DNA of 53,723 bases from Bryobacterales bacterium (GTDB taxonomy: Bacteria; Acidobacteriota; Terriglobia; Bryobacterales; Bryobacteraceae): positions 79,498 through 133,220 of the forward strand of contig PLRJ01000060.1 in assembly GCA_003163855.1 (NCBI GenBank), given 5' to 3'. Under the pieces are notes generated by a model. The model made no database searches. It was not told the origin of the DNA and worked only from the letters and a program-made list of their open reading frames with translations. The position numbers and the translations under genes were made by a program. Position 1 is the first letter of the stretch. Each line of letters begins with the position of its first letter. Shown in pieces: positions 846 through 12,284 of this stretch.

Positions 846-1508
846 TTAATCCCCGGCGGGAAGCGCCCGGGTCTTTAAATCTGCCAGCAAGCGGTCCACC
901 TGATCGGCTTTTTCCATCTCGAGCAGACGCTGCTCGGCGCTGGGAAGACCGTTTGCCAATTGACCGAGGCCTTCTGCTTCGACATCGGCAACCTTCGTGC
1001 GGGCGCGGTCGAACCTTGCTTCCGTTTGGACGTCCTGCAGGTTTCCTGCTCCAGCCTTCAACATCAGCCGAGCCCGGCGATGCTGGGCCACCAGCAGCTC
1101 GGTCTTAGCTTTAGTCTCGGCGATCTTCTGCTCCAGCCGGTGCAGCGCGTCGCGCAGCATCTGGACCGAATGCGACTGATCTTCAATCTGCTGCGCGAAG
1201 TTTGTTGCTGCGGTCTCATAGGTCAGCGAGCGCTCAATCGCCACGCGCGCCAGGCCCTCCTCGTTCTTGTGAACGGCGAACTCGGCCTTGCGCAGCCACT
1301 CGCGCTGGGAAGCAAGGTTTTCCTGCTGCTTCTTCTCCAGTTGATGCTGGTCGGCAATGGCCATCGCCACCTGCGTCTTTACCTGCATGTACTGGTTCTG
1401 CATGTCGAGGAGAAGCTGCTTCAGCAGCTTCTCCGGATCTTCGGCCTTGTCGATGAGGTCGTTCAAATTAGCTTTGATGAGCGTTGTCACTCTATCGAGT
1501 AGTGCCAT
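846..1508 (-). CDS. pspA: PspA/IM30 family phage shock protein
   Basis: PspA/IM30 (ESCRT-III superfamily) protein of 220 residues, the usual length. The N-terminus MALLDRVTTLIKANLNDLID is the amphipathic membrane-binding helix. Nearly all the rest is charged coiled coil rich in Q, E, K and A (about 25-190), including the conserved segment EDPEKLLKQLLLDM. In characterised systems PspA polymerises on damaged inner membrane and limits proton leakage. It is the last gene of a leftward operon, 11 bp after the flotillin gene, in the order XRE regulator, NfeD-like, flotillin, PspA. No PspB, PspC or PspF is seen, so control is probably through the XRE protein. The function is family knowledge; the operon is read from the sequence. 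Confidence 0.92.
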   Translation of the reverse strand: MALLDRVTTLIKANLNDLIDKAEDPEKLLKQLLLDMQNQYMQVKTQVAMAIADQHQLEKKQQENLASQREWLRKAEFAVHKNEEGLARVAIERSLTYETAATNFAQQIEDQSHSVQMLRDALHRLEQKIAETKAKTELLVAQHRRARLMLKAGAGNLQDVQTEARFDRARTKVADVEAEGLGQLANGLPSAEQRLLEMEKADQVDRLLADLKTRALPAGD

Positions 1509-1519
1509 AGTGTTGTTCC

Positions 1520-2950
1520 TTATTTACCTTTCGAGACATCGGGGTTGATGATGCCGTTCACGTGATCGCCCATGCCGCGCACTTTGCCTAATAGTTCGGA
1601 CATCGGCATGCCCGAAAGAGTTTCAAACAGAGCCGGCACCTGCGCGGCAATTTTGACCATGTCGCCGGTGATGTGGTTCATACCTGACGTGCCCTCGCCG
1701 GTAGAAACAATGGTGATCTTATCTACGTTGGCCAGAGGGGACGCCAGCGCCCGCACCACGTCTGCCATGTTGGTGATGATCTTATCCGCGACGGCGGCTT
1801 GGTTCCACTGCTTATAAGCTTCGGCCTTCACGTTCATGGCTTGCGCCTCGGCTTCACCCTTCTTCAAGATGATTTCGGCATCGGCCTGACCTTGCAGCCG
1901 CGTGGCTGCAGCGTTACCCTCAGCCTCGGCGATGGTCTTCTGACGCAAAGCATCGGCCATGGTTTCAATGCGCTTCTTCTCCGCTTCCACGTTCTTTAAA
2001 ACTGTGGCGGTAAGTTCCCTTTCATGCCGGATGATTTCGGCTTCCTGAACCTTGATCTCCTGTTCCTTCTCTACCTGCCGCACCTTAACCGACTCCACCA
2101 CTACCTGCTGTTGCATGATGTTGGCCTGAATGTCGTAGGCTTTGTCGGCTTGCGCCTGCTGGCGCTTGATGGTTTCGACGTATTGCGCGCGTTTGATTTC
2201 AAGATCACGTTGCGCTTCCGCCTGCGCGCCGAGCGAAAGTGATTGCGCCTGCACTCGCTCCTGGTCGGCCTGCGAGGTGGCCACGGCGGCTGCCCTGGTG
2301 GCCTCGGCACGCCGAATGGCGGTGTCGCGTTCCGCTTCGGCGGCGGCTACATCGGCGTCGCGTTTGATGCGCGCGATGTCGGGCCGTCCCATATTGCTGA
2401 TGTACTCGTTCTTGTCGCGGACTTCCTTGATGGTGAACGAAACCACTTCCAGACCCATCTTGCTCATGTCTTCGGCGCAGGTGCCGCGCATGCGGTCACC
2501 CACCATTTCGGGCTCTTTGACAATCTGCTCCACCGAAAGCTGGCCGATGATGCCGCGCAGGTGGCCTTCCATGACAAGCCGGATCAGCCCTTCACGCGCC
2601 GCGTCGGACTTCGTCAGAAACTGTTCCGCCGCCGTTCTTATGGACTCGGGGTCGCTCTTCACCTTGATCTGAGCTACCGCTTCCACCGTCACGGCGACAC
2701 CTTGCTTGGTGTAGAGGTCCTGCTGCGGCGCCACATCAAAAGACATCAATTGGAGTGAAAGCTGACGGTATGTTTCGATCATCGGGAAAATGAAAGTACC
2801 GCCGCCGTTAATGATTCGGGTTTTGCGCAAACCGTAGACGATGATGGCTTCGTGCGGACCCGCCTTACGAAAGAGCGTAGCGGCCGTGGCCATAAACACC
2901 AGAACTACGAGCACCAAGATAATCACAAAAATCGCAACTTCACTGAACAT
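1520..2950 (-). CDS. floT: Flotillin-family SPFH/band-7 membrane scaffold protein
   Basis: Flotillin-like protein of 476 residues. One N-terminal membrane segment (about 6-25, very V/I/L rich) is followed by an SPFH/band-7 domain (about 30-195). A long coiled coil with repeated EA/AEA blocks (about 200-380) and a short C-terminal region with Gly and Met complete it. This matches the domain order of bacterial FloT/YqiK proteins that oligomerise in ordered membrane microdomains. The gene follows the NfeD-like gene with no spacing (stop and start within 1 bp) and precedes pspA by 11 bp. NfeD-flotillin pairs are a well-known arrangement (for example yuaF-floT in Bacillus). The symbol is by family, not by proven orthology. 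Confidence 0.93.
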   Translation of the reverse strand: MFSEVAIFVIILVLVVLVFMATAATLFRKAGPHEAIIVYGLRKTRIINGGGTFIFPMIETYRQLSLQLMSFDVAPQQDLYTKQGVAVTVEAVAQIKVKSDPESIRTAAEQFLTKSDAAREGLIRLVMEGHLRGIIGQLSVEQIVKEPEMVGDRMRGTCAEDMSKMGLEVVSFTIKEVRDKNEYISNMGRPDIARIKRDADVAAAEAERDTAIRRAEATRAAAVATSQADQERVQAQSLSLGAQAEAQRDLEIKRAQYVETIKRQQAQADKAYDIQANIMQQQVVVESVKVRQVEKEQEIKVQEAEIIRHERELTATVLKNVEAEKKRIETMADALRQKTIAEAEGNAAATRLQGQADAEIILKKGEAEAQAMNVKAEAYKQWNQAAVADKIITNMADVVRALASPLANVDKITIVSTGEGTSGMNHITGDMVKIAAQVPALFETLSGMPMSELLGKVRGMGDHVNGIINPDVSKGK

Positions 2951-2951
2951 G

Positions 2952-3578
2952 TCAGTTCTCCTTTGGCGATGCTTCGGGCCGCGCAGTTTCGCCGGCCGAC
3001 TGGGTCATCGCCTCCCAAGTGCGTACATACGCAATCCCTTTTTCGAAGCGGGTAACGACCACTTCTTCTCCACGCGGAATGGGGATGCCCGATTCGCTGC
3101 GGGCACTCGCCAGGCGGCGCGCGCCCTCGTGGGTATAAACCAATTCGCCGACACCATCGGCACGGATGGTGCTGGAAACGCGGCCTAAAACTCCCACCAT
3201 CTCGAAGTCGGCTGGATCAAGATGGCGCTCGTGCTTCATCAGCCAGCTGAGGAACGACGCTATCAGGAACGCGCCTGCCAAGCCCATAACGACGGCTATC
3301 GCCAGGTTGACCCAGAACAGCCAACCCGAATATTTGTTCAACAGGTAGCCACCGCCTCCAAACCAGGCGAGAAACACCGCGATAGCGCTGGGATTTAGCA
3401 GGCTCAGCAGCCAACCAGGGGCGCCGTGGCCTGCATGACCATGGCCGGCCTGACCGTGGCCGATACTGCCGTGCCCATGCCCCATGTGACCAACGTGAAA
3501 GCCGCCCAGCAGGAACGACACTAATGCCCAGAGTGTTCCCACACCAAAGCAAATCAGATAGATTTCAGGCCAATTCAT
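2952..3578 (-). CDS. NfeD-like membrane protein with His/Gly-rich loop
   Basis: Membrane protein of 208 residues. It has an N-terminal membrane segment (about 5-25), then a striking His/Gly-rich stretch (about 27-52) built of repeated GHG/HAG units. Two further membrane segments follow (about 56-75 and 88-115), and then a soluble beta-rich C-terminal domain (about 125-190) that fits the NfeD OB fold. NfeD-C proteins are partners of flotillins, and this gene sits directly upstream of the flotillin gene. Its start overlaps the end of the XRE gene by 14 bp, implying translational coupling. The His-rich loop is not a usual NfeD part and could bind metal ions (inference). The role is assigned mostly from context, topology and the C-terminal domain. 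Confidence 0.8.
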   Translation of the reverse strand: MNWPEIYLICFGVGTLWALVSFLLGGFHVGHMGHGHGSIGHGQAGHGHAGHGAPGWLLSLLNPSAIAVFLAWFGGGGYLLNKYSGWLFWVNLAIAVVMGLAGAFLIASFLSWLMKHERHLDPADFEMVGVLGRVSSTIRADGVGELVYTHEGARRLASARSESGIPIPRGEEVVVTRFEKGIAYVRTWEAMTQSAGETARPEASPKEN

Positions 3579-4056
3579 CGCGCAATACCTCCTTGGGTTT
3601 CAACACGTCCCACAGCCTGTTCAACAAGCCGGGAGCATCCAGCACCTCGGCCAAGAGCAAGATACATTTGCGGGTGTCCTCATGTCGCGCAACCTTCAGC
3701 AAAGCCTCCGCCAGCGGGGGGTCGCGCCGGAAGCGCTCAACCCCTTGAATAAGCCAGAGGTCGAGTTTGTCTTCCTGCTCGCTAAGATCGGTAATAAGTT
3801 CGGTCTGGAAGCCTTCTGGATCATCCACCAGATAACCCGGATGAACTTTGAAGAACCTGGCCAGCAGCAGCCGGGTTGTATTAGTAAGGTGCTTTCGCGT
3901 TCCATTCTCTAATTGCGAGAGGTAGGACTGGCTGATGGACTTCTTCATCTCGCGCTTGATGGCCGCAACGATCTCCTTTTGCGTCATCTCGCGGTCTAAT
4001 CCGCGCAGATGCCCCTCTACAGAGCGCAGATAGCGAATTTTAGCGGCGACATTCAT
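3565..4056 (-). CDS. XRE-family helix-turn-helix regulator of the NfeD-flotillin-PspA operon
   Basis: Regulator of 163 residues and first gene of the leftward operon. A helix-turn-helix lies at about 25-60. It begins MTQKEIVAAIKREMKKSISQ and has the XRE signature SQSYLSQLENGTRKHL, followed by TNTTRLLLARFFKVHPGYLVDD. The C-terminal half (about 85-163) is helical and of unknown role, possibly for dimerisation or sensing. The gene end overlaps the NfeD-like gene by 14 bp. A perfect inverted repeat lies 15 bp upstream of the start (4071-4108), so autoregulation is likely. Membrane stress is the obvious candidate signal, judged from the genes controlled, but nothing in the sequence names the ligand. 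Confidence 0.88.
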   Translation of the reverse strand: MNVAAKIRYLRSVEGHLRGLDREMTQKEIVAAIKREMKKSISQSYLSQLENGTRKHLTNTTRLLLARFFKVHPGYLVDDPEGFQTELITDLSEQEDKLDLWLIQGVERFRRDPPLAEALLKVARHEDTRKCILLLAEVLDAPGLLNRLWDVLKPKEVLRDELA

Positions 4057-4070
4057 GACGATTTACTTAA

Positions 4071-4108
4071 TATTGCAATCTGCTAATTAAATATCACGGA
4101 TTGCAATA
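4071..4108. promoter_or_regulatory. Inverted-repeat operator upstream of the XRE gene
   Basis: TATTGCAATC at 4071-4080 is matched by its exact reverse complement GATTGCAATA at 4099-4108. The arms are 10 bp with an 18-bp AT-rich spacer. Each arm also contains the 8-bp palindrome ATTGCAAT, so the two sites are identical dyads with centres 28 bp apart. The position is just upstream of the XRE start and inside the divergent intergenic region shared with the DIP1984-family gene. That suits a dimeric repressor acting on its own operon and perhaps on both directions. The rest of 4057-4359 shows no gene. Confidence 0.7.
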
Positions 4109-4359
4109 AGCGGCAAGGGAAATCGAGCCAACCCTTGGTACTGGCCGATTAGTTTGAAGGAAGGGGGGAGACGGCTCGGCCTTGCGGAAAAGTAAACGGA
4201 GGCGGTTAAAGCTGAATGCGGAATAGTCCGGATCGGATAAAAACTACCTCCGTCCACCGCGCCCCCCGTCCACCGCGACCCGGCACGTTGGAAGTGGGAC
4301 CGGCGGACCGGTCGATGCGGAGAAATCGTATTGCTAGAATCACGGCAAGGAAGCAAAGG

Positions 4360-4815
4360 ATGAAACTTGCGGAGGCACTGGCCTTGCGGGCGGATCTCCA
4401 GAAACGTCTCGAGCAATTAAAGCAGAGGCTCGTAAAAAATGCGCGTATCCAGGAAGGTGACGCTCCGGAGGAGGACCCAGGTGAATTGCAGGCCGAGTTG
4501 GAGAAGTCGGCACGGGAACTGACTTTGCTGATTCAGCGTATCAACCGGACAAACGCTCAGTCTACATTTGGAGCCGGAACGCTTGCCGATTCACTTGCCG
4601 AACGGGACGTCCTGAAAATAAGATATACCGCCTATCGGGAGTTAGCCAATGCGGCTTCGACATCCCAAGGGCGCACTACGCGTTCGGAGGTGAAGTTCGT
4701 CAGCACAGTGAGCGTGGCGGCCACACAGCGAAAGGCCGACGACCTTGCGCGGGAGTATCGGGAGCTTGACACGCGAATCCAGGAAGCGGACTGGTTGACT
4801 ACTTTATTGGAATAG
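4360..4815 (+). CDS. DIP1984-family protein
   Basis: Protein of 151 residues of the DIP1984 family, annotated in some genomes as septicolysin-like. Family-typical segments are the start MKLAEALALRADLQKRLEQL, then NARIQEGDAPEEDP, LIQRINRTNAQ, LAERDVLK, RSEVKFVSTVSV and the end REYRELDTRIQEADW. Almost all of it is predicted helix. The start at 4360 matches the family N-terminus; the reading frame stays open back to 4216, but the extra Arg/Pro-rich residues look non-coding. An AAGGA lies about 8 bp upstream. The biochemical function is not established. The gene lies just upstream of a Y-RNA-like structure (4831-4998), which suggests a link to non-coding RNA or RNA repair (inference). It diverges from the XRE operon. 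Confidence 0.85.
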   Translation: MKLAEALALRADLQKRLEQLKQRLVKNARIQEGDAPEEDPGELQAELEKSARELTLLIQRINRTNAQSTFGAGTLADSLAERDVLKIRYTAYRELANAASTSQGRTTRSEVKFVSTVSVAATQRKADDLAREYRELDTRIQEADWLTTLLE

Positions 4816-4830
4816 GACGAGTAGGTAGTT

Positions 4831-4998
4831 GGCGAAACGAGAGGTGAGCACGACCCTCCGGCGGGGCAATGCCGATCTGGTAGTGCGAGGGCAGCATTAA
4901 ACGGTTCGATTCCGACCGCACAGCGTATGCCCCGTATTTCGTACAAACGCACGGCGTATTGTAACCGTGTACAACCGTGTGCTGATCTCGTATTCGCC
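4831..4998 (+). ncRNA. Predicted Y RNA-like ncRNA with tRNA-like module
   Basis: A structured RNA begins 15 bp after the DIP1984-family stop. The ends form a long helix: 4831-4842 pairs with 4986-4998 (12 bp, one bulged A at 4992). After a small internal loop, 4847-4851 pairs with 4979-4983. Inside, 4863-4872 (GGGGCAATGC) pairs with 4923-4933 (GCGTATGCCCC, one bulged A) as an acceptor-like stem of 10 bp. That stem encloses a D-loop-like TCTGGTAGTGCGA and a T-loop-like GGTTCGATTCCGACC. A possible 5-bp, 7-nt-loop hairpin (4882-4898) competes with the D-arm fold. A terminal Ro60/Rsr-binding helix plus a tRNA mimic is the design of bacterial Y RNAs (YrlA class). No Ro60 (TROVE) gene is in this window. 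The strand is inferred from the gene context and the T-loop orientation. Exact ends are unknown. Confidence 0.7.
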
Positions 4999-5057
4999 GG
5001 CGAGGGTGGGAACGGGGCACTCGTCCAGGCATTAGCCGCCACCCGGTTTCAAGGAAA

Positions 5058-5188
5058 GGCGACGTCGGAGCGGTGCGGTAGGGGACACGCCTGCGGTTCG
5101 GACCTGGGTGGAGGACGGAATCCAGCCTGGAGTGTCCCCGAGAGGCTTTTCGGTTGCTGGGGAGAAGAGGAGTCAGTGGCTCGTCGCT
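5058..5188 (+). ncRNA. Possible second Y RNA-like structured RNA
   Basis: About 60 bp after the first RNA the same plan appears again. Closing strands 5058-5063 (GGCGAC) and 5068-5071 (GAGC) pair with 5183-5188 and 5179-5182. After 9 nt, 5081-5088 (GGGGACAC) pairs perfectly with 5132-5139 (GTGTCCCC). About 40 nt then precede the 3' closing strand. The spacings (9 and 39 nt) match those of the first RNA (10 and 42 nt). A GGTTCGGACC near 5095 only weakly recalls a T-loop. The 3' end runs into the stop codon of the convergent PhyH gene. A competing helix (about 5038-5045 with 5104-5111) exists. It may be a paralogous RNA or a degenerate copy. The 5001-5057 stretch holds nothing else recognised. 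Confidence 0.35.
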
Positions 5189-6023
5189 AAACCGCCGCCC
5201 CCTTCAACTTATCCACCTCGTCGTAAAGCCGCTTAATCCGCTGCGTGCGCGAATTCACAAACAACTCATTCTCCGTCAAATGCAGCAGCCACTCCGTTTG
5301 CCTCTGCCCGCCTATCACAAACTTTGTCGTCGGCTCATTGATGTCCTGGATGTGCACCTCCAGGTAAACCCGATCAGTCAGTTCGCCGTTCTCCGGTGAC
5401 TCATGCCATGTTCCTGAATGCATAATCAGCACATCACCCGGCCGCGTATTCGTCTCCACCTTCGGATATCCCGCCGGGAGCACGTTCGAAATCTCGCCCG
5501 CATCGCCCAGGTATCCATAGTTGTGCGTGCCCGGATACAGTACCAGCCCGCCATTGGCGTAATGGCAGTGCGTCAGCGGAATAAACAGTGAGTAGCGCTG
5601 GAAACTCCCAATCTGGTAGCACGTGTCCTGATGCAGGAACACGGACAGGAAATTCTTCTTGTCTTTCTTCACAACACGGATAAAGTCCGCGCCCACGTTG
5701 CCGCCGAAAAAGTTGCCGGCGATGCTCCGCAGTTCAGGTTCAGCCAGAATGTCATGCAGCGGATTCTCGTGCTTAATCTTCACCTCCGTCACATGGAAAG
5801 GTGTTTTCTCAAGACCCGGTCCGCCAAGATGTTCGAAGTACGAAGCCGCATAGCGCGCGATCGTCTCCGGCCGGAACGCATTCTTCAGCACAAACATGCC
5901 GAGAAACGCCAGCACCTGATGGTCAAGCGACTCCGCTATATACCGTTTGCTCTCGATGATCGCCTTCAATTTCTCGATAGGCGCACTGATCTTCTCGCTC
6001 ACACACACTAAGTAGTTGGACAT
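5187..6023 (-). CDS. Phytanoyl-CoA dioxygenase (PhyH) family Fe(II)/2-oxoglutarate oxygenase
   Basis: Protein of 278 residues from the ATG at 6023. A longer frame to 6119 would run into the divergent gene and is not favoured. The PhyH double-stranded beta-helix is visible. It has the iron ligands HQD (in FLHQDTCYQIG) and the distal His (in HSGTWHESPENG), followed by an Arg (DRVYLEVHIQ) that usually holds 2-oxoglutarate. Family members hydroxylate fatty-acyl chains or small natural products using O2, Fe(II) and 2-oxoglutarate. It diverges from the LuxC/LuxE/transketolase operon with only 94 bp between the starts. It may therefore tailor the same product (inference). The substrate is unknown. 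Confidence 0.85.
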   Translation of the reverse strand: MSNYLVCVSEKISAPIEKLKAIIESKRYIAESLDHQVLAFLGMFVLKNAFRPETIARYAASYFEHLGGPGLEKTPFHVTEVKIKHENPLHDILAEPELRSIAGNFFGGNVGADFIRVVKKDKKNFLSVFLHQDTCYQIGSFQRYSLFIPLTHCHYANGGLVLYPGTHNYGYLGDAGEISNVLPAGYPKVETNTRPGDVLIMHSGTWHESPENGELTDRVYLEVHIQDINEPTTKFVIGGQRQTEWLLHLTENELFVNSRTQRIKRLYDEVDKLKGAAV

Positions 6024-6117: not shown

Positions 6118-6789
6118 ATGAATCTACTGGTCTACTGCTCCGGCGGGTTCGGTAAAGAAGTCATCGACATTGCGCGCCGCCTCAACAAAGCCTATCTTCG
6201 CTGGGACCGCATCGCCTTCATCGACGATATTCGCGCCTCAAATTGCGAGCAGGAACCCGCCCACTATGGCTTGCCGGTGTTCCAATTGGAAACGGCCTGC
6301 GATCATTTCGCCGATTATGAAACAGAAGCCGTCATCGCCAACGGTGAGCCCTCGGTGCGTAGCGCACTGCTTGAGAAACTCGATGCCGTCAACGTGCGGC
6401 TGGCCACCCTGATCGACCCTTCTGCCGTAGTCTCAGAAACGGCGCTCATCGGCGACGGCGGCATCGTCTTTCCAGGCTGTTTTATATCGAGCATGGCCAA
6501 ACTGGGCCGAAACGTCGCTATCGTGGCCGGTTCCATGGTGGGACACGACACCATCATCGGCGACAACTGCGTCATCTCCGGCCATGTCAACATCGGTGGC
6601 GGCTGCATCATCGGCGGCGACAGCTATGTCGGCATGGGCAGCCAGATCAAGCAGAAGACCAGCATCGGACGCGGCGCTGTTGTCGGCATGGGATCGGTCG
6701 TGTTTGCGGATATTCCGGAAGAAGTAATCGCCCTGGGCAATCCGTGCCGTCCCATGCGGCCGAATACCGGCAAGAGGATCTTCGCGTAA
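6118..6789 (+). CDS. NeuD/PglD-like left-handed beta-helix acyltransferase
   Basis: Protein of 223 residues starting MNLLVYCSGGFGKEVIDIAR, the glycine-rich N-terminal fold of the NeuD/PglD sugar O-/N-acetyltransferases. The C-terminal half (about 100-205) is a run of hexapeptide repeats (VVSETALIGDGGIVFPGCFI, AIVAGSMVGHDTIIGDNCVI, INIGGGC-type turns) forming a left-handed beta-helix that uses acetyl-CoA or another acyl donor. The family's catalytic His may be the H in MVGHDTIIGD. It is the first gene of the rightward operon and ends directly against the ACP start (6790). With an ACP next door the donor could be acyl-ACP (inference). The upstream in-frame extension to 6016 overlaps the PhyH gene and was not used. 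Confidence 0.85.
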   Translation: MNLLVYCSGGFGKEVIDIARRLNKAYLRWDRIAFIDDIRASNCEQEPAHYGLPVFQLETACDHFADYETEAVIANGEPSVRSALLEKLDAVNVRLATLIDPSAVVSETALIGDGGIVFPGCFISSMAKLGRNVAIVAGSMVGHDTIIGDNCVISGHVNIGGGCIIGGDSYVGMGSQIKQKTSIGRGAVVGMGSVVFADIPEEVIALGNPCRPMRPNTGKRIFA

Positions 6790-7059
6790 ATGAGTAATAA
6801 AGACCGATACGATCACGTCTTTTTTCAGTCGTTCACCCTGCAGCCGCAGGACCTGAACGAAAACCTTATCTACAACTCCATCCCTAGCTGGGATTCCGTT
6901 GGCCACATGTCCATGATTGCCGCGCTAGAAACCGAGTTCGACATCATGATGGAAACCGACGACATCATCGATTTCAGCTCGTACTTCAAAGGCTTTGAAA
7001 TTCTTGCCAAGTACGACGTCAAGATAGTCACGCCTGGAGGAAGTCATCCCTTTCCATGA
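6790..7059 (+). CDS. Acyl carrier protein
   Basis: Small acidic protein of 89 residues with the phosphopantetheine attachment site in IPSWDSVGHMSMI (Ser about 36; the usual DSL appears as DSV). Typical ACP helices follow (ALETEFDIMMETDDIIDF). It should be modified by a phosphopantetheinyl transferase encoded elsewhere and carry an acyl chain as a thioester. It starts immediately after the NeuD-like stop. A dedicated ACP beside an AMP ligase, LuxE and LuxC suggests the chain handled by these enzymes is ACP-bound. The C-terminal tail (about 75-89) is Pro/Gly rich and unusual for an ACP. The 94 bp to the next gene contain a GC-rich hairpin (about 7087-7110). Confidence 0.85.
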   Translation: MSNKDRYDHVFFQSFTLQPQDLNENLIYNSIPSWDSVGHMSMIAALETEFDIMMETDDIIDFSSYFKGFEILAKYDVKIVTPGGSHPFP

Positions 7060-7153
7060 CGAGCTTTTAGGTAACACGCGCAAGACGGGCGCGGGGTCGG
7101 GCGCCCCGCCGAGAGGGCTAGGGAATGCATTTCTTCCCTGGCGGCGCGCAGCC

Positions 7154-8545
7154 GTGCCCTTTGCGCTTCGCCAGTTCGGTCAGGCTGCCGCGCTCATCAC
7201 CCCTGCCGGCGAGACTCTAACCTATAACGACACCGCCGCTGCGGCCGATAACTTCGCGACGCACATCGGCCCGCGCAAGTTGGTGTTCATTCTGGCTTCC
7301 AACTGTGCCGAATCGGTGATTGGGTATCTCGGGTGCCTCGGTGCCAAAGCGCCGGCGGCGCTGTTAGCCCCGAACATCCACCCTGATCTCCTCAGCAATC
7401 TGCTGCACCTCTACCGCCCGCATTATTTATGGCTGCCGCGTGGCCGCGCTAGTGTCCTGCCTGCTGGCGCCGAACTCTTCGCTTTGGGCGATTACGTGCT
7501 CGGTGCCTACTGTACAGAACCACTCGAGGTATTCGACCAACTCGCCCTACTCATGCCAACTTCTGGTACCACCGGTAGTCCTAAGTTCGTTCGCCAGTCC
7601 TACAGCAACCTGGCGTCTAACGCCGCGGCCATCGCGAGTTACCTGCAAATCTGCGCCTGCGACAAAGCCATCACTACGCTGCCCATGCACTACGTTTATG
7701 GCCTGTCCATCATCAACTCGCACTTGCAGGCCGGCGCTGCAGTCGTCCTCACCACGGCCGGATTGATGGAAAAGCGCTTCTGGGAGTTGCTCAATTCTCA
7801 GCAAGTCACCAGCCTCGCTGGAGTACCTTACACCTACGAGCAACTTAAGCGCCTTGCCTGGCATCGCATGCAGTTGCCCAGCCTTCGCACGATGACTCAG
7901 GCCGGCGGCAAACTGCACCCCTCGCTTGCCGTTGAGTTCGCCTCGCATTGCCTGGCGAAAGGCATTCTTTTCTATCTTATGTATGGAGCGTCGGAAGCTA
8001 CGGCCCGCATGTGCTATCTGCCGCCCCACCTGGCGCTTGAAAAATCGGCCAGCGTGGGCATTCCCATCCCCGGCGGCGAACTCTGGCTCGAAGATGAAAC
8101 ACGCCAACCTATCACCCAGCCCAACGTTTCGGGCGAGCTGTGTTATCGCGGTCCCAACGTTGCTCTAGGTTATGCCCACTCCCGCGCTGACCTGGCGCTC
8201 GGCGACGAGTTCCACGGCACTCTCAGAACAGGCGACCTGGCCCACTGTGACGAGGACGGCCACTACTACATCACAGGACGCAAAAGCCGCTTCATTAAGT
8301 TATTCGGCAACCGGGTGAGCCTGGAAGACATGGAGCAGTTGATTCGCAACGCCGGCATCGATTGCGCCTGCACGGGCGACGACCAGGCACTCCGAGTGTA
8401 CGTCTCCAAAGTCTCCGAGCACGACGATATCGCCTCTTTCGTGCAGCAACTCACCAACCTGCACCGTTCCGTCATTAAAACCACCGTCATCGATTCCATA
8501 CCCAGAAACGAAGCCGGGAAGATCATCTATGCGGAGCTTCCCTGA
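7154..8545 (+). CDS. AMP-dependent acyl-CoA/acyl-ACP synthetase (ANL superfamily)
   Basis: ANL-family adenylating enzyme of 463 residues. Motifs are the P-loop PTSGTTGSPK (about 136-145), the aromatic-box region YGASEA, the hinge FGNRVSLED, and a C-terminal catalytic lysine in IPRNEAGKI. It would activate a carboxylic acid as the acyl-AMP and load it on CoA or the neighbouring ACP. It is somewhat short for the superfamily (usually 500-600), mostly at the N-terminus. The start is a GTG at 7154 preceded by no clear Shine-Dalgarno; no in-frame ATG is better. The start lies inside a 36-bp sequence that recurs with 4 mismatches at 13141-13176. The gene ends 1 bp into the next start (TGATGG). Confidence 0.88.
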   Translation: MPFALRQFGQAAALITPAGETLTYNDTAAAADNFATHIGPRKLVFILASNCAESVIGYLGCLGAKAPAALLAPNIHPDLLSNLLHLYRPHYLWLPRGRASVLPAGAELFALGDYVLGAYCTEPLEVFDQLALLMPTSGTTGSPKFVRQSYSNLASNAAAIASYLQICACDKAITTLPMHYVYGLSIINSHLQAGAAVVLTTAGLMEKRFWELLNSQQVTSLAGVPYTYEQLKRLAWHRMQLPSLRTMTQAGGKLHPSLAVEFASHCLAKGILFYLMYGASEATARMCYLPPHLALEKSASVGIPIPGGELWLEDETRQPITQPNVSGELCYRGPNVALGYAHSRADLALGDEFHGTLRTGDLAHCDEDGHYYITGRKSRFIKLFGNRVSLEDMEQLIRNAGIDCACTGDDQALRVYVSKVSEHDDIASFVQQLTNLHRSVIKTTVIDSIPRNEAGKIIYAELP

Positions 8546-9612
8546 TGGAAGATCTAATGGCGACCGCTCCGTTCTCGCTCGACGCCCCTGCCCGGCGCAG
8601 AATCTGCTCGGACGAGTTGTCAAATCTTACCCGCCATCACTACGAACAAAGCCCGGAATTCCAGCGAGTCGCCACGCTATTCGGCTACTCTGCAAGCGCG
8701 TGTAAACCGGTTGAAGACCTGCCCTTTCTCCCCATTCGATTGTTCAAAGAATTTGAACTTCTCAGCGTTCCTCGCGGCGAGATCATCAAGACCATGACCT
8801 CTTCCGGAACTTCCGGCCAGGCTGTCTCAAAAATCTTTCTCGACCGCACTACCGCCACTAATCAAACTAAAGTCCTGGTGAAAATCGTCTCCTCGTTCAC
8901 CGGCGCCAAACGACTGCCCTTGCTGATCGTCGATAGTCCGTCCGTTATCAAAGACCGCAATCTTTTTTCCGCGCGCGGCGCCGCCATCCTCGGCTTTTCC
9001 ATGCTGGGCTGCGATCCCACCTATCTCCTCAACGACGATTATCAGATCGATTTCGGCCGCCTCGACGCTTTCCTCGAAAGGCATGAGGGGAGCAAAGTAC
9101 TGCTTTTCGGTTTCACTTTCATCGTTTGGCAGCATCTGTGCCTGGCGCTGGAATCCACGGGCCGCCGACTCGAACTCGATGGCATCCTGCTGCACGGTGG
9201 AGGCTGGAAAAAGCTTGCCTCACTGGCGGTCGATAACCAGACTTTCAAAGCCCGCGTTGCCGGCCTCTGCGGCATCTCCACCGTCTGCAACTACTACGGC
9301 ATGGTGGAACAAACAGGCTCTATCTTCCTCGAGTGTTCCGCGGGCGTTCTGCACGCCTCTATTTTTTCCGACATCATCGTGCGCGACCCCGTGACTTTCG
9401 TTCCTCTCCCGCCGCGCCAGGCCGGCCTGCTGCAAGTGATCTCACTGCTGCCCACCAGTTATCCCGGCCATTCCCTGCTGACCGAAGACGTGGGGGAAAT
9501 CCTCGGCGAGGACGACTGCCCGTGCGGGCGCAAGGGCAAGTATTTCGCCGTCCACGGCCGCGTCGTCAATGCCGAAGTCAGGGGGTGCAGCGATGTGTAT
9601 GCTCCCCAATAG
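8545..9612 (+). CDS. luxE-like: LuxE-like acyl-protein synthetase
   Basis: Protein of 355 residues of the LuxE/PaaK-like group. Recognisable parts are the N-terminal PVEDLPFLPIRLFKEFELLS, the adenylation motif MTSSGTSGQAVSKI (about 90-103), LLFGFTFIVW, LHGGGWKK and NYYGMVEQTGSIFLEC. There is also a C-terminal CPCGRKGKYF, a Cys pair common in this family. In luminous bacteria LuxE activates a fatty acid and passes it to LuxC for reduction to the aldehyde. Here it overlaps the ligase stop by a base and overlaps luxC by 20 bp. No luciferase (luxAB) gene is present, so the aldehyde has another use. A second start (MATAPFS) 4 codons in is possible. Confidence 0.9.
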   Translation: MEDLMATAPFSLDAPARRRICSDELSNLTRHHYEQSPEFQRVATLFGYSASACKPVEDLPFLPIRLFKEFELLSVPRGEIIKTMTSSGTSGQAVSKIFLDRTTATNQTKVLVKIVSSFTGAKRLPLLIVDSPSVIKDRNLFSARGAAILGFSMLGCDPTYLLNDDYQIDFGRLDAFLERHEGSKVLLFGFTFIVWQHLCLALESTGRRLELDGILLHGGGWKKLASLAVDNQTFKARVAGLCGISTVCNYYGMVEQTGSIFLECSAGVLHASIFSDIIVRDPVTFVPLPPRQAGLLQVISLLPTSYPGHSLLTEDVGEILGEDDCPCGRKGKYFAVHGRVVNAEVRGCSDVYAPQ

Positions 9613-10792
9613 CAATGGTCTGCGCTATGTCCTCGGCAGCCCGGTTGGCTTCTTCGCTCAACCGCTGCCACCTTTCGCGCCGCCGGTTTGCGATCTTCTA
9701 GCCAACCTTTCTGCCCAGCTTGTCGCCGACCACGAAACCCGCACTATGCCGGACGTCGTCGCCTTCGCCTGGTGGTGCCGGAAAGCCAACATGCAGCGCC
9801 TGGCTGCTGGTTATGAGGACGGTCAACTGCGCCTCGGCCGCGGCTTGGCCCTGCACATCACGCCCACCAATACTCCCATCAACTTCGCTTTCTCCTGGGC
9901 ATTCTCACTGCTGGCCGGCAATGCCAACATCGTGCGCCTGCCGAATCGCGATTTTCTGCAGGTCGAGTTCGTCCTGCGTCATCTGCGGCTGCTCTTAGCA
10001 AATGAATTATGCACCAGGAACGCCTTTATCCGCTACGGCCACGACGAAGAAATCACCAGCGCGCTCAGCGCCCTCGCCGACGTGCGCCTCATCTGGGGCG
10101 GCGACTCGACCATTCAAGCTGTACGGAAATCTGCTCTGCCGCCGCGCGGCCTCGACCTCGCCTTCGCCGACCGCTACTCGCTCTGCGTCCTGTCACCCGA
10201 CGCCGTTCTGGCCTTGGATGCAGCCTCAGTCAAGCAGCTTGCGATGCACTTTTTCAACGATACGTACCTTATGGATCAGAACGCCTGCTCGTCGCCCCGC
10301 CTGGTGATCTGGCTTGGCAGCGCGTCCGAAACCGCTGACGCGCAAGCCCGTTTCTGGACCGTTCTGCAAGCCGAACTCGATCGACGCTATCAACTCACCG
10401 CCTCCTCCGCCGTCGATAAATTCACTCAAGCCTGCCGCGACGCCATCGAACTCAATGGCAACGTAACGGCATTTCAGCGCGCCGATCCGCGCCTTTACCG
10501 GATTCCGCTCAACCATCTCTTCACCGGGATCGAAGAACGCCGCTGCGGGCATGGCTACTTCTATGAATTCACCACCAGTTCGCTTGACCAGCTCGCACCT
10601 ATCGTTAACAGTAAATACCAGACTCTGACATACTTCGGCGTTGTCAAAGAGGAACTGGCCGCTTTTGTGGCAAACAACCGGCTGAGCGGTATTGACCGCA
10701 TTGTTCCCATCGGAAAGGCGCTTGACATCGGCCTCACCTGGGATGGCTTCGATCTCATCCGAACTCTCTCCCGCGTTTGCGAGGTTACCTAA
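9593..10792 (+). CDS. luxC-like: LuxC-like acyl-CoA/acyl-protein reductase
   Basis: Protein of 399 residues of the LuxC family (aldehyde-dehydrogenase fold), making an aldehyde from an enzyme-bound acyl thioester with NADPH. Visible are LHITPTNTPINFAFSWAFSL (cofactor region), the nucleophile in DQNACSSPRL (Cys about 230), and IRYGHDEEIT and RLIWGGDSTIQ. The chosen ATG (9593) has AGGGGG 7 bp upstream and lies inside the luxE-like frame, so the two are translationally coupled. An alternative ATG at 9569 adds 8 residues. It sits directly downstream of the LuxE-like gene, the pairing needed for a two-component fatty-acid reductase. Confidence 0.92.
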   Translation: MCMLPNSNGLRYVLGSPVGFFAQPLPPFAPPVCDLLANLSAQLVADHETRTMPDVVAFAWWCRKANMQRLAAGYEDGQLRLGRGLALHITPTNTPINFAFSWAFSLLAGNANIVRLPNRDFLQVEFVLRHLRLLLANELCTRNAFIRYGHDEEITSALSALADVRLIWGGDSTIQAVRKSALPPRGLDLAFADRYSLCVLSPDAVLALDAASVKQLAMHFFNDTYLMDQNACSSPRLVIWLGSASETADAQARFWTVLQAELDRRYQLTASSAVDKFTQACRDAIELNGNVTAFQRADPRLYRIPLNHLFTGIEERRCGHGYFYEFTTSSLDQLAPIVNSKYQTLTYFGVVKEELAAFVANNRLSGIDRIVPIGKALDIGLTWDGFDLIRTLSRVCEVT

Positions 10793-11532
10793 TGCTTGAA
10801 GGAAAAACAGCTCTCATCACAGGCTGCCTAAAAGGCATCGGCTACGAAGCCATGCAACTATTCGCTCGTTCCGGAGCCAACATTCTGGCCTGCTGCCAGC
10901 ATCAGGACCCCGCCTGGGAAGCTTCTCGTCAACAACTCGCCGAAGAAGCCGGCGTCACCATTACCCCTTTTTATTTCGACATGGCCAACGCGGAAGAAAT
11001 CCGATCCGCCATGAAGCAACTGGCTGCCCAAAAGCACAAAGTAGACATCCTGCTGAACATTGCTGGCATCGCGCAGGATTCGCTCTTCCAAATGACCACC
11101 CTCGACAGCATGCGCTCTGTCTTCGATGTCAACTTCTTCTCCCAGATGCTCATCACCCAATACGCCAGCAAGCTGATGGCGCGCCAGGAATCCGGCAGCA
11201 TCGTCAATGTCTCCTCCATCTCAGCCATCGACGGGAACGCCGGACAGATCTCTTACAGTTGCTCCAAAGCCGCCCTCATTGGAGCGACGAAGACACTGGC
11301 AACCGAACTCGCGGAACACAACATCCGCGTCAACGCCATCGCTCCTGGCGTCATCAAAACCGGCATGACCACTGCTCTCCCTGCTGCTGCGCTCGAAAAT
11401 CTCTGCGCCCGCATCCCGATGAAGCGCATGGGGTTGCCTTGTGAGGTCGCGGGCGTCATGCTCTTCCTCGCCTCCGACCTTTCCAGCTACATCACCGGCC
11501 AAGTCTTGCGCGTGGACGGAGGCATCGGCTAG
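10792..11532 (+). CDS. SDR-family oxidoreductase (FabG-like), copy 1
   Basis: Short-chain dehydrogenase of 246 residues. The nucleotide site is TGCLKGIG, and the catalytic Ser-Tyr-Lys is read as VSSIS...YSCSK. The C-terminal ASDLSSYITGQVLRVDGG is typical of FabG-type ketoreductases. The usual NNAG motif is NIAG here, a mild deviation also seen in active SDRs. The start ATG overlaps the luxC stop (TAATG). A close paralogue follows after 2 bp, so the pair arose by tandem duplication. Likely role: reduction of a keto group on an acyl chain, or on the ketol made by the neighbouring transketolase (inference). Confidence 0.92.
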   Translation: MLEGKTALITGCLKGIGYEAMQLFARSGANILACCQHQDPAWEASRQQLAEEAGVTITPFYFDMANAEEIRSAMKQLAAQKHKVDILLNIAGIAQDSLFQMTTLDSMRSVFDVNFFSQMLITQYASKLMARQESGSIVNVSSISAIDGNAGQISYSCSKAALIGATKTLATELAEHNIRVNAIAPGVIKTGMTTALPAAALENLCARIPMKRMGLPCEVAGVMLFLASDLSSYITGQVLRVDGGIG

Positions 11533-11534
11533 CC

Positions 11535-12284
11535 ATGCTGCTTAGACAAAAAACCGCGATCATCACCGGTTGCGCACGCGGCATCGGCCGCCAAACTCTT
11601 ATCGCTTTCGCGCAGCACGGAGCCAATCTCTGGGCCTGCAGCCGCAGCGAAACACCCGAACTGCACCAACTCATCAGTAACCTCACGCAAACTCACGGGG
11701 TCTCCATCACACCGCTTTTCTTCGACCTCACCGATGCCGCGCAGCTAAAACAAGCCGTCAAAACAATTGCTACGGCTAAATCCCCGGTTGACATCCTGGT
11801 CAACAACGCCGGCATCACCCACAACGCCCTGTTTCAAATGACTTCCAGCGAGAAAATGCGCGAACTTTTCGAAGTCAATTTCTTCGCCCAGACCGCCCTG
11901 ACTCAATATATTGTCCGCCTCATGCTGCGCCAGAAATCGGGCAGCGTCATTAACATCTCATCCACCGCCGCCCTCGACGCCAATCCGGGCCGCGGCGCTT
12001 ATGGAGCGAGTAAAGCCGCCCTAAGCTGCATCACCCGCACCATGGCGCACGAACTCGCTGAACACAACATCCGGGTGAACGCTATCGCTCCCGGTGTCAC
12101 CGACACCGACATGCTGTACGACAGCATGTTGCCATCGACAATCGACGCGGCCATCCGGCAAACACGGCTCAAACGCCTGGGGCAGCCATCGGAAATTGCC
12201 AGCGCCGCCGTCTTCCTGGCCTCCGATCTTGCTTCTTATATGACCGGTGAAATTCTGCGCGTAGACGGAGGATTGCAAAATTGA
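11535..12284 (+). CDS. SDR-family oxidoreductase (FabG-like), copy 2
   Basis: Second short-chain dehydrogenase, 249 residues, paralogous to the preceding gene along its length (for example NIRVNAIAPGV and FLASDL.SY.TGE.LRVDGG in both). It keeps the canonical motifs TGCARGIG, NNAG, a Ser in INISSTAAL and YGASK. Retaining two paralogues side by side points to two distinct reductions, or opposite directions, in one pathway (inference). Its TGA stop overlaps the TTG start of the transketolase subunit gene, so translation is coupled. Confidence 0.92.
   Translation: MLLRQKTAIITGCARGIGRQTLIAFAQHGANLWACSRSETPELHQLISNLTQTHGVSITPLFFDLTDAAQLKQAVKTIATAKSPVDILVNNAGITHNALFQMTSSEKMRELFEVNFFAQTALTQYIVRLMLRQKSGSVINISSTAALDANPGRGAYGASKAALSCITRTMAHELAEHNIRVNAIAPGVTDTDMLYDSMLPSTIDAAIRQTRLKRLGQPSEIASAAVFLASDLASYMTGEILRVDGGLQN

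What the first reader, a model, noticed from the sequence alone, without database searches (positions are those of the whole stretch)
4831..4998. A bacterial Y RNA-like gene next to a DIP1984-family gene
About 168 nt after the DIP1984 stop fold into a long closing helix (12 bp plus 5 bp with an internal loop and a bulged A) around a 10-bp acceptor-like stem with D-loop-like and T-loop-like sequences. Terminal Ro60/Rsr-binding helix plus tRNA mimic is the design of YrlA RNAs, and the two-level pairing is hard to explain by chance. No Rsr gene is in the window, so the partner may lie elsewhere, or the DIP1984 protein itself may be the partner.
Basis: partly seen in the sequence, partly recalled or inferred. 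Interest (0 to 1): 0.85.

Follow-up and report, generated by a model that had tools for sequence, protein, structure and literature searches.

The report
Widespread unnamed RNA beside DIP1984 gene
Just after a bacterial gene of unknown function sits a large, intricately folded, conserved RNA that matches no catalogued RNA family and in some lineages lies among transfer-RNA and RNA-repair genes.

Summary
The window holds a real structured RNA, but not a Y RNA. It is longer than reported (about 4815-5026; modelled core 4823-5017) and starts at the DIP1984 (DUF6847) stop codon. 65 of 65 DIP1984 loci fetched, from about ten phyla, carry it (28 of them trained the model). In Chloroflexota it lies beside 19 of 21 DIP1984 hits, one of them a training member. 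In 200 relatives the strong matches to gene and RNA are the same four genomes. P1-P3, a pseudoknot, P5 and a T-arm-like hairpin are supported by compensatory changes (covariation 0.469 against 0.204 +/- 0.010 shuffled). No Rfam 15 family reached threshold at the RNA. The genome shows no Ro60/Rsr, and one relative has a separate true YrlA beside this RNA. In some lineages the pair lies in tRNA arrays or beside RtcB/RtcA, RNA-ligase or Rsr-YrlA genes. Best explanation: DIP1984 and this RNA form an RNP serving tRNA-damage or translation stress (inferred, about 0.5). Whether a 2016 paper I could not read already described it is open.

The parts
4360..4815 (+). DIP1984-family gene (PF20935 DUF6847, NF038048), 151 aa, stop TAG 4813-4815
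   Evidence: Pfam 175.1 bits, NCBIfam 181.2 bits; AlphaFold2 model of four helices, pLDDT 93.6; matches PDB 3kdq
4815..5026 (+). whole structured RNA, about 212 nt, from P1 to P1'
   Evidence: CM R1 148.3 bits at 4823-5017 (the window is one of the 29 training sequences), single copy in the genome; P1 extends it
4815..4822 (+). P1 5' strand (GGACGAGT), begins at the last base of the stop codon
   Evidence: 8 bp with 5019-5026; P1 of at least 6 uninterrupted bp in 48 of 81 members against 7.9% of swapped partners
4824..4827 (+). GGUA, unpaired junction, 96-99% conserved
   Evidence: A6 column conservation
4828..4842 (+).
4847..4851 (+). P3 5' strand (AGCAC)
   Evidence: 99.3% of cells paired in A1, 5 of 5 pairs with changes on both sides; 99.6% in 52 rows not used for training
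4854..4874 (+). H-type pseudoknot: stem A 4854-4856/4864-4866, stem B 4859-4862/4871-4874
   Evidence: covariation 0.247 against 0.115 +/- 0.017 shuffled, 0 of 500
4882..4898 (+). P5 hairpin, loop GAGGGCA
   Evidence: 78.9% paired, 5 of 5 pairs with double changes; 90.5%
4902..4914 (+). T-arm-like hairpin, loop TTCGATT; optional in the family
   Evidence: strict T-loop motif in 43 of 81 members
4927..4957 (+). P7 hairpin (4927-4931/4953-4957 in the window), weakest helix
   Evidence: 67.1% paired in A1 and 63.5% in A6; the window pairs one base out of the register of A1 (read by eye)
4979..4983 (+). P3 3' strand
4986..5001 (+). P2 3' strand with bulged A4992
5002..5017 (+). conserved G-rich strand GAGGGnGGGnnnGGGG
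   Evidence: G columns 93-100% conserved; motif in 74 of 81 members by the strict pattern
5019..5026 (+). P1 3' strand (ACTCGTCC)

Best explanation
A roughly 210-nt structured RNA, encoded at the 3' end of the DIP1984 transcript, forms an RNP with the DIP1984 protein. The pair travels as a module and serves the response to tRNA damage or translation stress. SHOWN: the RNA is conserved, structured by covariation, placed at the end of the DIP1984 gene, and found in part of its range inside tRNA arrays or next to RNA-repair genes. INFERRED: co-transcription and release from the mRNA, binding by DIP1984, horizontal transfer, and action as a tRNA mimic. In the inferred mechanism P1, GGUA and the G-rich strand form the protein-binding base, while the P5/T-arm half imitates a tRNA elbow and either holds tRNA-handling enzymes (ligase, modification or processing enzymes) on damaged tRNAs or decoys tRNA nucleases.
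For: 65 of 65 DIP1984 loci have an R1 match (28 trained the model, 37 did not; weakest L049, 26.7 bits, a disrupted locus). Chloroflexota: 19 of 21 hits, 18 of 20 without the training member L109 = L016. Of 200 relatives the same 4 have strong gene and RNA matches (three of these four, window, L007 and L009, are training members). The RNA starts a median 11 nt after the stop, 52 of 63 within 20 nt. Terminator-like hairpins follow it in 12 of 81 loci against 0 of 78 and 0 of 81 controls. At least one tRNA in 13 of 57 loci against 2 of 77 control segments; four or more: 6 of 57 against 0 of 77. Rows of genes: 20 tRNAs - RNA ligase - DIP1984 - RNA - RtcB in a cyanobacterium (L089); 12 tRNAs - Rsr - tRNA-Leu - YrlA - DIP1984 - RNA (L091 = L026); 27 and 21 tRNAs around the module (L092, L095); tRNA-Asp - DIP1984 - RNA - RtcB in Rubrobacter (L090). 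Acinetobacter: rtcB - unknown - DIP1984 - weak RNA match (13.4 bits) - rtcA. A viral contig with 27 tRNAs and the module. Published (passages only): in A. baumannii rtcB and the gene after it were the most induced under tigecycline (PMC7652931); in Anabaena a 26-tRNA operon and rtcB share a repressor relieved by translation inhibitors (PMC10272220).
Against: Nothing here shows transcription, protein binding or function. The own genome (89% complete) has no match to RtcB or TROVE, and the only tRNA in the window lies at 47.4 kb. 11 of 43 carrier genomes had no RtcB match at E <= 0.001. 44 of 57 loci have no tRNA in the fetched stretch. Only 2 of 92 nearest-neighbour ORFs are RtcB. The T-loop motif is missing from 38 of 81 members by the strict pattern. 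One strong RNA (G350, 62.8 bits) is in a genome without a PF20935 match. Two of four viral DIP1984 loci and two Acinetobacter plasmid loci have no R1 match. The DIP1984 model matches only a solved structure of unknown function. I could not tell whether the gene induced with rtcB in A. baumannii is DIP1984.
Confidence: 0.5

Rival explanations
1. A cis-acting 3'-UTR element: the RNA binds DIP1984, a tRNA or another ligand and controls the stability or 3' end of its own mRNA; it has no life as a separate RNA.
For: It starts close to the stop codon (median 11 nt) and is followed by terminator-like hairpins in 12 of 81 loci. T-loop motifs are used by RNAs that bind tRNA elbows (general knowledge).
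Against: A strong RNA in a genome without a PF20935 match (G350) and two copies about 550 and 1350 nt after the gene in a viral contig (L083). Its size and conservation across phyla are unusual for a 3'-UTR element (general knowledge).
Confidence: 0.22
2. An RNA-based addiction or toxin-antitoxin module with DIP1984 as one half and the RNA as the other.
For: Patchy distribution: 4 of 200 relatives with a strong match, 370 of 72,556 plasmid records, 341 of them Acinetobacter, a tRNA-rich viral contig. Some plasmid copies are annotated 'septicolysin'.
Against: Type III antitoxin RNAs are tandem repeats before an endoribonuclease gene (general knowledge); here the only tandem repeat found is 2.2 copies of 16 nt at 4246-4281, outside the RNA, and the RNA follows the gene. 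DIP1984 matches only DUF6847 in Pfam and only 3kdq below E 0.001 in the PDB fold search.
Confidence: 0.1
3. A bacterial Y RNA (YrlA type) held by a Ro60/Rsr protein encoded elsewhere.
For: Long closing helix, T-loop-like hairpin, and a Rsr-YrlA neighbourhood beside the module in L026.
Against: No YrlA match; no TROVE match in the own genome; no conserved acceptor stem; YrlA and this RNA are two separate matches side by side in L026.
Confidence: 0.03
4. A structured RNA for a task unrelated to tRNA, for example envelope or membrane stress, with tRNA arrays merely a shared landing site of mobile DNA.
For: 44 of 57 loci have no tRNA nearby and 90 of 92 nearest neighbours are not RtcB; in the window the neighbours are PspA, Band_7 and an HTH protein.
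Against: tRNA linkage exceeds the control and several RNA-repair contexts recur; the window's Band_7 and HTH proteins have no match in the other loci held by then, most with flanks of only 2 kb.
Confidence: 0.15

Closest known systems
YrlA, bacterial Y RNA (RF02553) with Rsr
   Same: Closing helix, T-arm-like hairpin, ties to RNA-repair genes; could work alike as a scaffold RNP.
   Different: No match to the model, no Rsr match in the genome, about 210 nt instead of 90-150 nt (PMC8394870, passages), pseudoknot and G-rich junction, no conserved acceptor arm; both RNAs occur side by side in L026.
GOLLD RNA
   Same: A large ornate RNA that co-localises with tRNA clusters and HNH genes (PMC9569102, passages).
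   Different: No Rfam match to GOLLD at the RNA; this one follows a DIP1984 gene.
tmRNA
   Same: T-arm-like hairpin and a pseudoknot.
   Different: No tmRNA call by ARAGORN in the window or 57 loci; no conserved reading frame: no plus frame is open in more than 13 of 81 members. One chance-level match to a tmRNA model at L079 (12.4 bits, E 7.2).
'Novel tRNA-like molecule' with SPFH/Band-7 RNA-repair systems (Burroughs and Aravind 2016; recalled from its abstract, paper not held)
   Same: tRNA-like RNA in RNA-repair neighbourhoods; the window has a Band_7 gene 1.4 kb away.
   Different: Cannot be compared. Band_7 was not among the seven Pfam families matched by two of 92 nearest neighbours.
OLE and similar RNAs with a dedicated protein gene next door (recalled)
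   Same: Large conserved RNA plus an adjacent partner gene.
   Different: No Rfam match; different protein.

Membership tests
YrlA / bacterial Y RNA | Match to the curated covariance model RF02553 | tested here: not met
   No YrlA match to E = 10 in window 4600-5300; none at this RNA in the loci at gathering score, while a true YrlA was found elsewhere in L026
YrlA / bacterial Y RNA | Ro60/Rsr partner (TROVE) in the genome | tested here: not met
   0 matches in the own genome, 89% complete; the control rings in 1 of 14 genomes, Deinobacterium chartae
YrlA / bacterial Y RNA | Large stem pairing the 5' and 3' ends | tested here: met
   P1 and P2
YrlA / bacterial Y RNA | tRNA-like domain with D, T and acceptor arms | tested here: not met
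   T-arm-like hairpin yes; acceptor stem unsupported; no D arm among the supported helices
YrlA / bacterial Y RNA | Binding of Rsr and PNPase | not testable with these tools
   needs biochemistry
tRNA / tmRNA | Call by ARAGORN or Rfam at the RNA | tested here: not met
   window: only a tRNA-Glu at 47.4 kb. In relatives: one ARAGORN tRNA-Arg call inside the RNA of L128, a weak tRNA-Sec match in L138, the same place (22.7 bits, E 3.2), and a weak tmRNA match in L079, both below threshold
Any Rfam 15 family | Match at gathering score overlapping the RNA | tested here: not met
   window and 31 loci (28 of the 31 have an R1 match at E <= 1e-5, L077 only a weak one, L084 and L085 none); with E up to 10 in 13 loci, three weak matches overlap the RNA, to three different families, two of them of the tRNA clan
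DIP1984-associated RNA (this family) | CM R1 match directly after a DIP1984 gene | tested here: met
   148.3 bits at 4823-5017, 7 nt after the stop codon; by construction, as the window is in the training set
Type III antitoxin RNA | Tandem repeats before a toxin gene | tested here: not met
   the RNA follows the gene and has no tandem repeat; one repeat of 2.2 x 16 nt lies before the gene at 4246-4281
RtcB-dependent RNA-repair operon | RtcB in the genome or operon | tested here: not met
   no match in the own genome; met in L089, L090 and L077

The most novel reading that the evidence does not exclude
An unrecognised RNP, as complex as the Ro60-Y RNA or tmRNA-SmpB particles and spread by horizontal transfer through bacteria, plasmids and tRNA-rich viral genomes. 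Its RNA imitates a tRNA elbow and works as scaffold or decoy in the arms race over tRNA cleavage, with DIP1984 as its dedicated protein. The GGUA plus three G-tracts, nearly invariant, may form a quadruplex-like base that DIP1984 grips (not tested).
Probability: 0.3. Interest if true: 0.95.

Novelty: categorically new. Interest (0 to 1): 0.85.

Why it matters
A DIP1984/DUF6847 protein has had a solved structure (3kdq, released 2009, titled 'functionally unknown'). An RNA that accompanies the gene almost one to one in the sets tested, across about ten phyla, gives the family a concrete lead and a ready test: pull down the protein, sequence the RNA. If it is an RNP of the tRNA-damage response, it would join Rsr-YrlA, RtcB and tRNA arrays as a missing part of bacterial RNA repair. 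It would also call into question the label 'septicolysin' that this gene carries in some Acinetobacter plasmid records.

Tried and rejected
Rejected: (1) YrlA. (3) A tRNA or tmRNA gene. (4) A coding region: in none of six frames are more than 19 of 81 members open. (5) Pairing of the nearly invariant GGUAG with CUACC: the first hardly varies, the second does (alignment A1); by eye, not scored. (6) Window neighbours Band_7, HTH and PhyH as conserved partners: no matches in the loci held by then outside the own genome, but most flanks were only 2 kb.

Led nowhere: DNA search with the bare 168 nt (no match in the other 99 genomes); viral fold search (none at E <= 0.001); promoter and terminator scan of window 4050-5250 (none found); papers naming DIP1984 (1 paper, listing only) or DUF6847 (none); Burroughs and Aravind 2016 and Chen 2014 not held.

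Weak points: P7 is poorly supported. P1 varies in offset: at least 6 bp in 48 of 81, own partner in the top 5% of swaps in 53 of 81; in the earlier free-duplex test the own partner was best in 17 of 55 and among the best three in 29 of 55 for P1, and 34 and 45 of 55 for P2, 10 near-duplicates dropped. Alignment A6 is fitted to the model and so leans to it; A1 was aligned by sequence alone, but I drew the structure after looking at an earlier alignment of the same loci. A1 used 29 of 66 sequences; near-duplicates and divergent members were left out. The whole-genome RNA searches over more than 40 genomes used stricter filters that lose weak matches, so RNAs without DIP1984 may be undercounted; G523's RNA was missed there and found in its locus. 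Three of the four carrier relatives and one of the 21 Chloroflexota loci are training members under another handle. L049 is a disrupted locus. The A. baumannii and A. lwoffii plasmid copies give no match at E <= 1; these and L085 keep a P2/P3-like pairing by eye. The Acinetobacter contig L077 scored only 13.4 bits. The terminator counts use my own rule and include close relatives. The wide loci were chosen partly for having tRNAs, so only the counts are used for enrichment; its 57 loci contain related cyanobacteria, and the 77 control segments come from 20 stretches of 16 carrier genomes.

Mended on checking: the row in L091 has 12 tRNAs before Rsr (13 in all, not 13 before it); the 21 Chloroflexota hits are not all independent; weak tRNA-clan matches added; repeat test run. 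None of these changed my odds.

Full report
WHAT IS THERE. The DIP1984-family gene ends at 4815 (PF20935; NF038048). So one sequence alone does not decide. The bare DNA finds nothing in the other 99 genomes searched, and the DIP1984 family has a match in 5 of 200 relatives, one of them (G011, 31 bits) a partial match inside a 689-aa frame.

A CONSERVED RNA AFTER THE GENE. A search of genome contigs with the DIP1984 protein gave 65 loci. Printing the DNA after the stop codon showed the same elements in locus after locus (output partly cut): a GGUA near the start, GAGCAC and GUGCUG, a T-loop-like GGTTCGANTCC in many, and a G-rich end GAGGGnGGGnnnGGGG. A first pattern for the end found it in 60 of the 65 loci and in the window, in L071 at a wrong place first; the other five were found with a second pattern written after looking at them. 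By record title the carriers include Acidobacteria, Chloroflexi, Cyanobacteria, Planctomycetes, Poribacteria, Armatimonadota (Capsulimonas, Chthonomonadaceae), Actinobacteria, Firmicutes, Bacteroidetes and one gammaproteobacterium; one MAG labelled Micrarchaeota may be a binning error (titles; the phylum names for genera are general knowledge).

STRUCTURE. A sequence-only MAFFT alignment of 29 members (A1) and a structure I drew on it gave 43 pairs, 83.9% of cells paired and 36 pairs with changes on both sides; covariation 0.469 against 0.204 +/- 0.010 in shuffles (0 of 500) and 0.069-0.102 when the partner is slid. The segment after P3 forms an H-type pseudoknot (covariation 0.247 against 0.115 +/- 0.017). 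P5 and the T-arm-like hairpin also covary; P7 is weak (67.1% paired). A covariance model of 195 positions (R1) was then used on 80 sources: 81 matches gave covariation 0.636 against 0.205 +/- 0.007 (this alignment is fitted to the model). In the 52 rows not used for training, the inner half of P2 is 96.5% and P3 99.6% paired. An outer helix P1 abuts GGUA and the G-rich strand: at least 6 uninterrupted bp in 48 of 81 members against 7.9% of swapped partners. In the window P1 is 8 bp and its 5' strand begins at the last base of the stop codon, so the RNA spans about 4815-5026.

HOW TIGHTLY IT FOLLOWS DIP1984. R1 matches 65 of 65 loci (28 of them in the training set; weakest L049 with 26.7 bits), the window (148.3 bits, training) and L005, a relative not in the training set (65.1 bits). 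In the own genome it is a single copy. In 200 relatives the strong RNA and strong DIP1984 matches are the same four genomes, three of them training members (window, L007, L009); the leftovers are weak and partial (G011 for the protein, G006 with 25.6 bits for the RNA). In 301 Chloroflexota genomes PF20935 hits 21, 20 over the curated cut-off. The RNA lies in 19 of the 21 loci, one of them a training member; of the two misses one locus ends 115 bases after the matched domain (L110) and the other has a run of N after the gene (L126/G488). At genome level, with stricter filters, the RNA is found in 21 of 301: 19 of these have a PF20935 match; G350 (62.8 bits) has none, and G402 is a partial 23-bit match. 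The start of the modelled RNA lies a median 11 nt after the stop codon (63 of 65 loci measured, 52 within 20 nt, largest 110). Terminator-like hairpins follow within 160 nt in 12 of 81 loci, against 0 of 78 further downstream and 0 of 81 inside the gene. This speaks for one transcript with the RNA at its 3' end; none is predicted in the window itself.

NEIGHBOURS. ARAGORN finds at least one tRNA in 13 of 57 loci (up to about 4.4 kb each) and four or more in 6, against 2 and 0 of 77 control segments from 16 carrier genomes (Fisher P 0.0003 and 0.005, loci not fully independent). Wider stretches show 20 tRNAs, an RNA ligase with a tRNA-binding domain, DIP1984, the RNA and RtcB in a row (L089); 12 tRNAs, a Rsr/TROVE gene, tRNA-Leu and YrlA next to the module (L091, same place as L026); the module inside 27 tRNAs (L092) and 21 tRNAs (L095); and tRNA-Asp, DIP1984, RNA, RtcB in Rubrobacter (L090). 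An Acinetobacter contig filed as phage has rtcB, an unknown gene, DIP1984, a 259-nt gap with a weak RNA match (13.4 bits, E 0.003), then rtcA. Two of four viral DIP1984 contigs carry the RNA; one of them has 27 tRNAs within 12 kb. On plasmids, Picosynechococcus (85 bits), Streptomyces (101.6) and Enterococcus (31.3) copies match, two Acinetobacter plasmids do not. Against this, RtcB had no match in 11 of 43 carrier genomes and in the own genome, and only 2 of 92 nearest-neighbour proteins were RtcB.

WHAT IT DOES. The best reading is an RNP of DIP1984 and this RNA in the response to tRNA damage or translation stress. Support is context (above) and published expression of neighbouring systems: rtcB and the gene directly after it rose most under tigecycline in A. 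baumannii (PMC7652931, passages; whether that gene belongs to this operon type I did not establish), and in Anabaena a 26-tRNA operon and rtcB share a repressor that translation inhibitors relieve (PMC10272220, passages). Rsr-YrlA, the closest analogue, is also coded with rtcBA in some bacteria and has a tRNA-like domain (PMC7790460 and PMC8394870, passages). Binding, transcription and function are inferred. The protein model (four long helices) matches below E 0.001 only 3kdq, itself without known function.

NOVELTY. No Rfam 15 family reaches its threshold at the RNA in the window or in 31 loci, 28 of which have a clear R1 match. With E up to 10 in 13 loci three weak matches overlap the RNA: tRNA-Sec in L138 (E 3.2) and a tmRNA model in L079 (E 7.2), both of the tRNA clan and in keeping with the T-arm-like hairpin, and an unrelated family on the other strand in L081. 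Paper searches for DIP1984 (1 hit), septicolysin (24 hits, 15 listed), DUF6847 (none) and combinations of YrlA, Rsr, RtcB, SPFH, Band-7, tRNA-like, tRNA array and noncoding RNA terms did not show this RNA in listings or in the passages I read. From memory, Burroughs and Aravind 2016 mention a novel tRNA-like molecule with SPFH/Band-7 systems; the paper is not held, so prior description is not excluded.

Noticed in passing
L026 1821-1957 and 3-1304 (same place as L091): A Rsr/TROVE gene, a tRNA-Leu and a true YrlA (71 bits) directly before DIP1984 and this RNA: two RNAs with tRNA-like parts in one neighbourhood.
   Followed up: partly
L083 6997-7178 and 7798-7983: A 178-kb viral contig has two copies of the RNA flanking an Endonuclease_7 gene, about 550 and 1350 nt after its DIP1984 gene.
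   Followed up: partly
L140 8768-8958 (minus strand): An RNA of this family (62.8 bits) in a Chloroflexota genome (G350) with no PF20935 match.
   Followed up: partly
L073 about 1960-2180, L078, L085: Acinetobacter plasmid copies of DIP1984 (annotated 'septicolysin' in some plasmid records) and a similar viral-collection contig are followed by a diverged version that keeps P2/P3-like pairing by eye but has no model match.
   Followed up: partly
L077 1208-4765: Acinetobacter contig filed as a phage: rtcB, a 166-aa protein with no Pfam match, DIP1984, rtcA in a row.
   Followed up: partly
L086: A 115-kb viral contig with 27 tRNA genes within 12 kb, a short (85-nt) Rfam tmRNA match, and DIP1984 and the RNA among them.
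   Followed up: partly
window 6118-12281: PglD-like acyltransferase, a small protein without Pfam match, AMP-binding enzyme, LuxE, LuxC and two short-chain dehydrogenases in a row: a LuxCE-type cluster.
   Followed up: no
window 846-4056 (minus strand): PspA/IM30, Band_7/flotillin, a protein without Pfam match and an HTH protein next to the DIP1984 gene.
   Followed up: partly
L128 1996-2075: ARAGORN calls a tRNA-Arg inside the RNA, which shows how tRNA-like some members look.
   Followed up: no
window 4246-4281: A 16-nt unit repeated 2.2 times about 80 nt before the DIP1984 gene.
   Followed up: no
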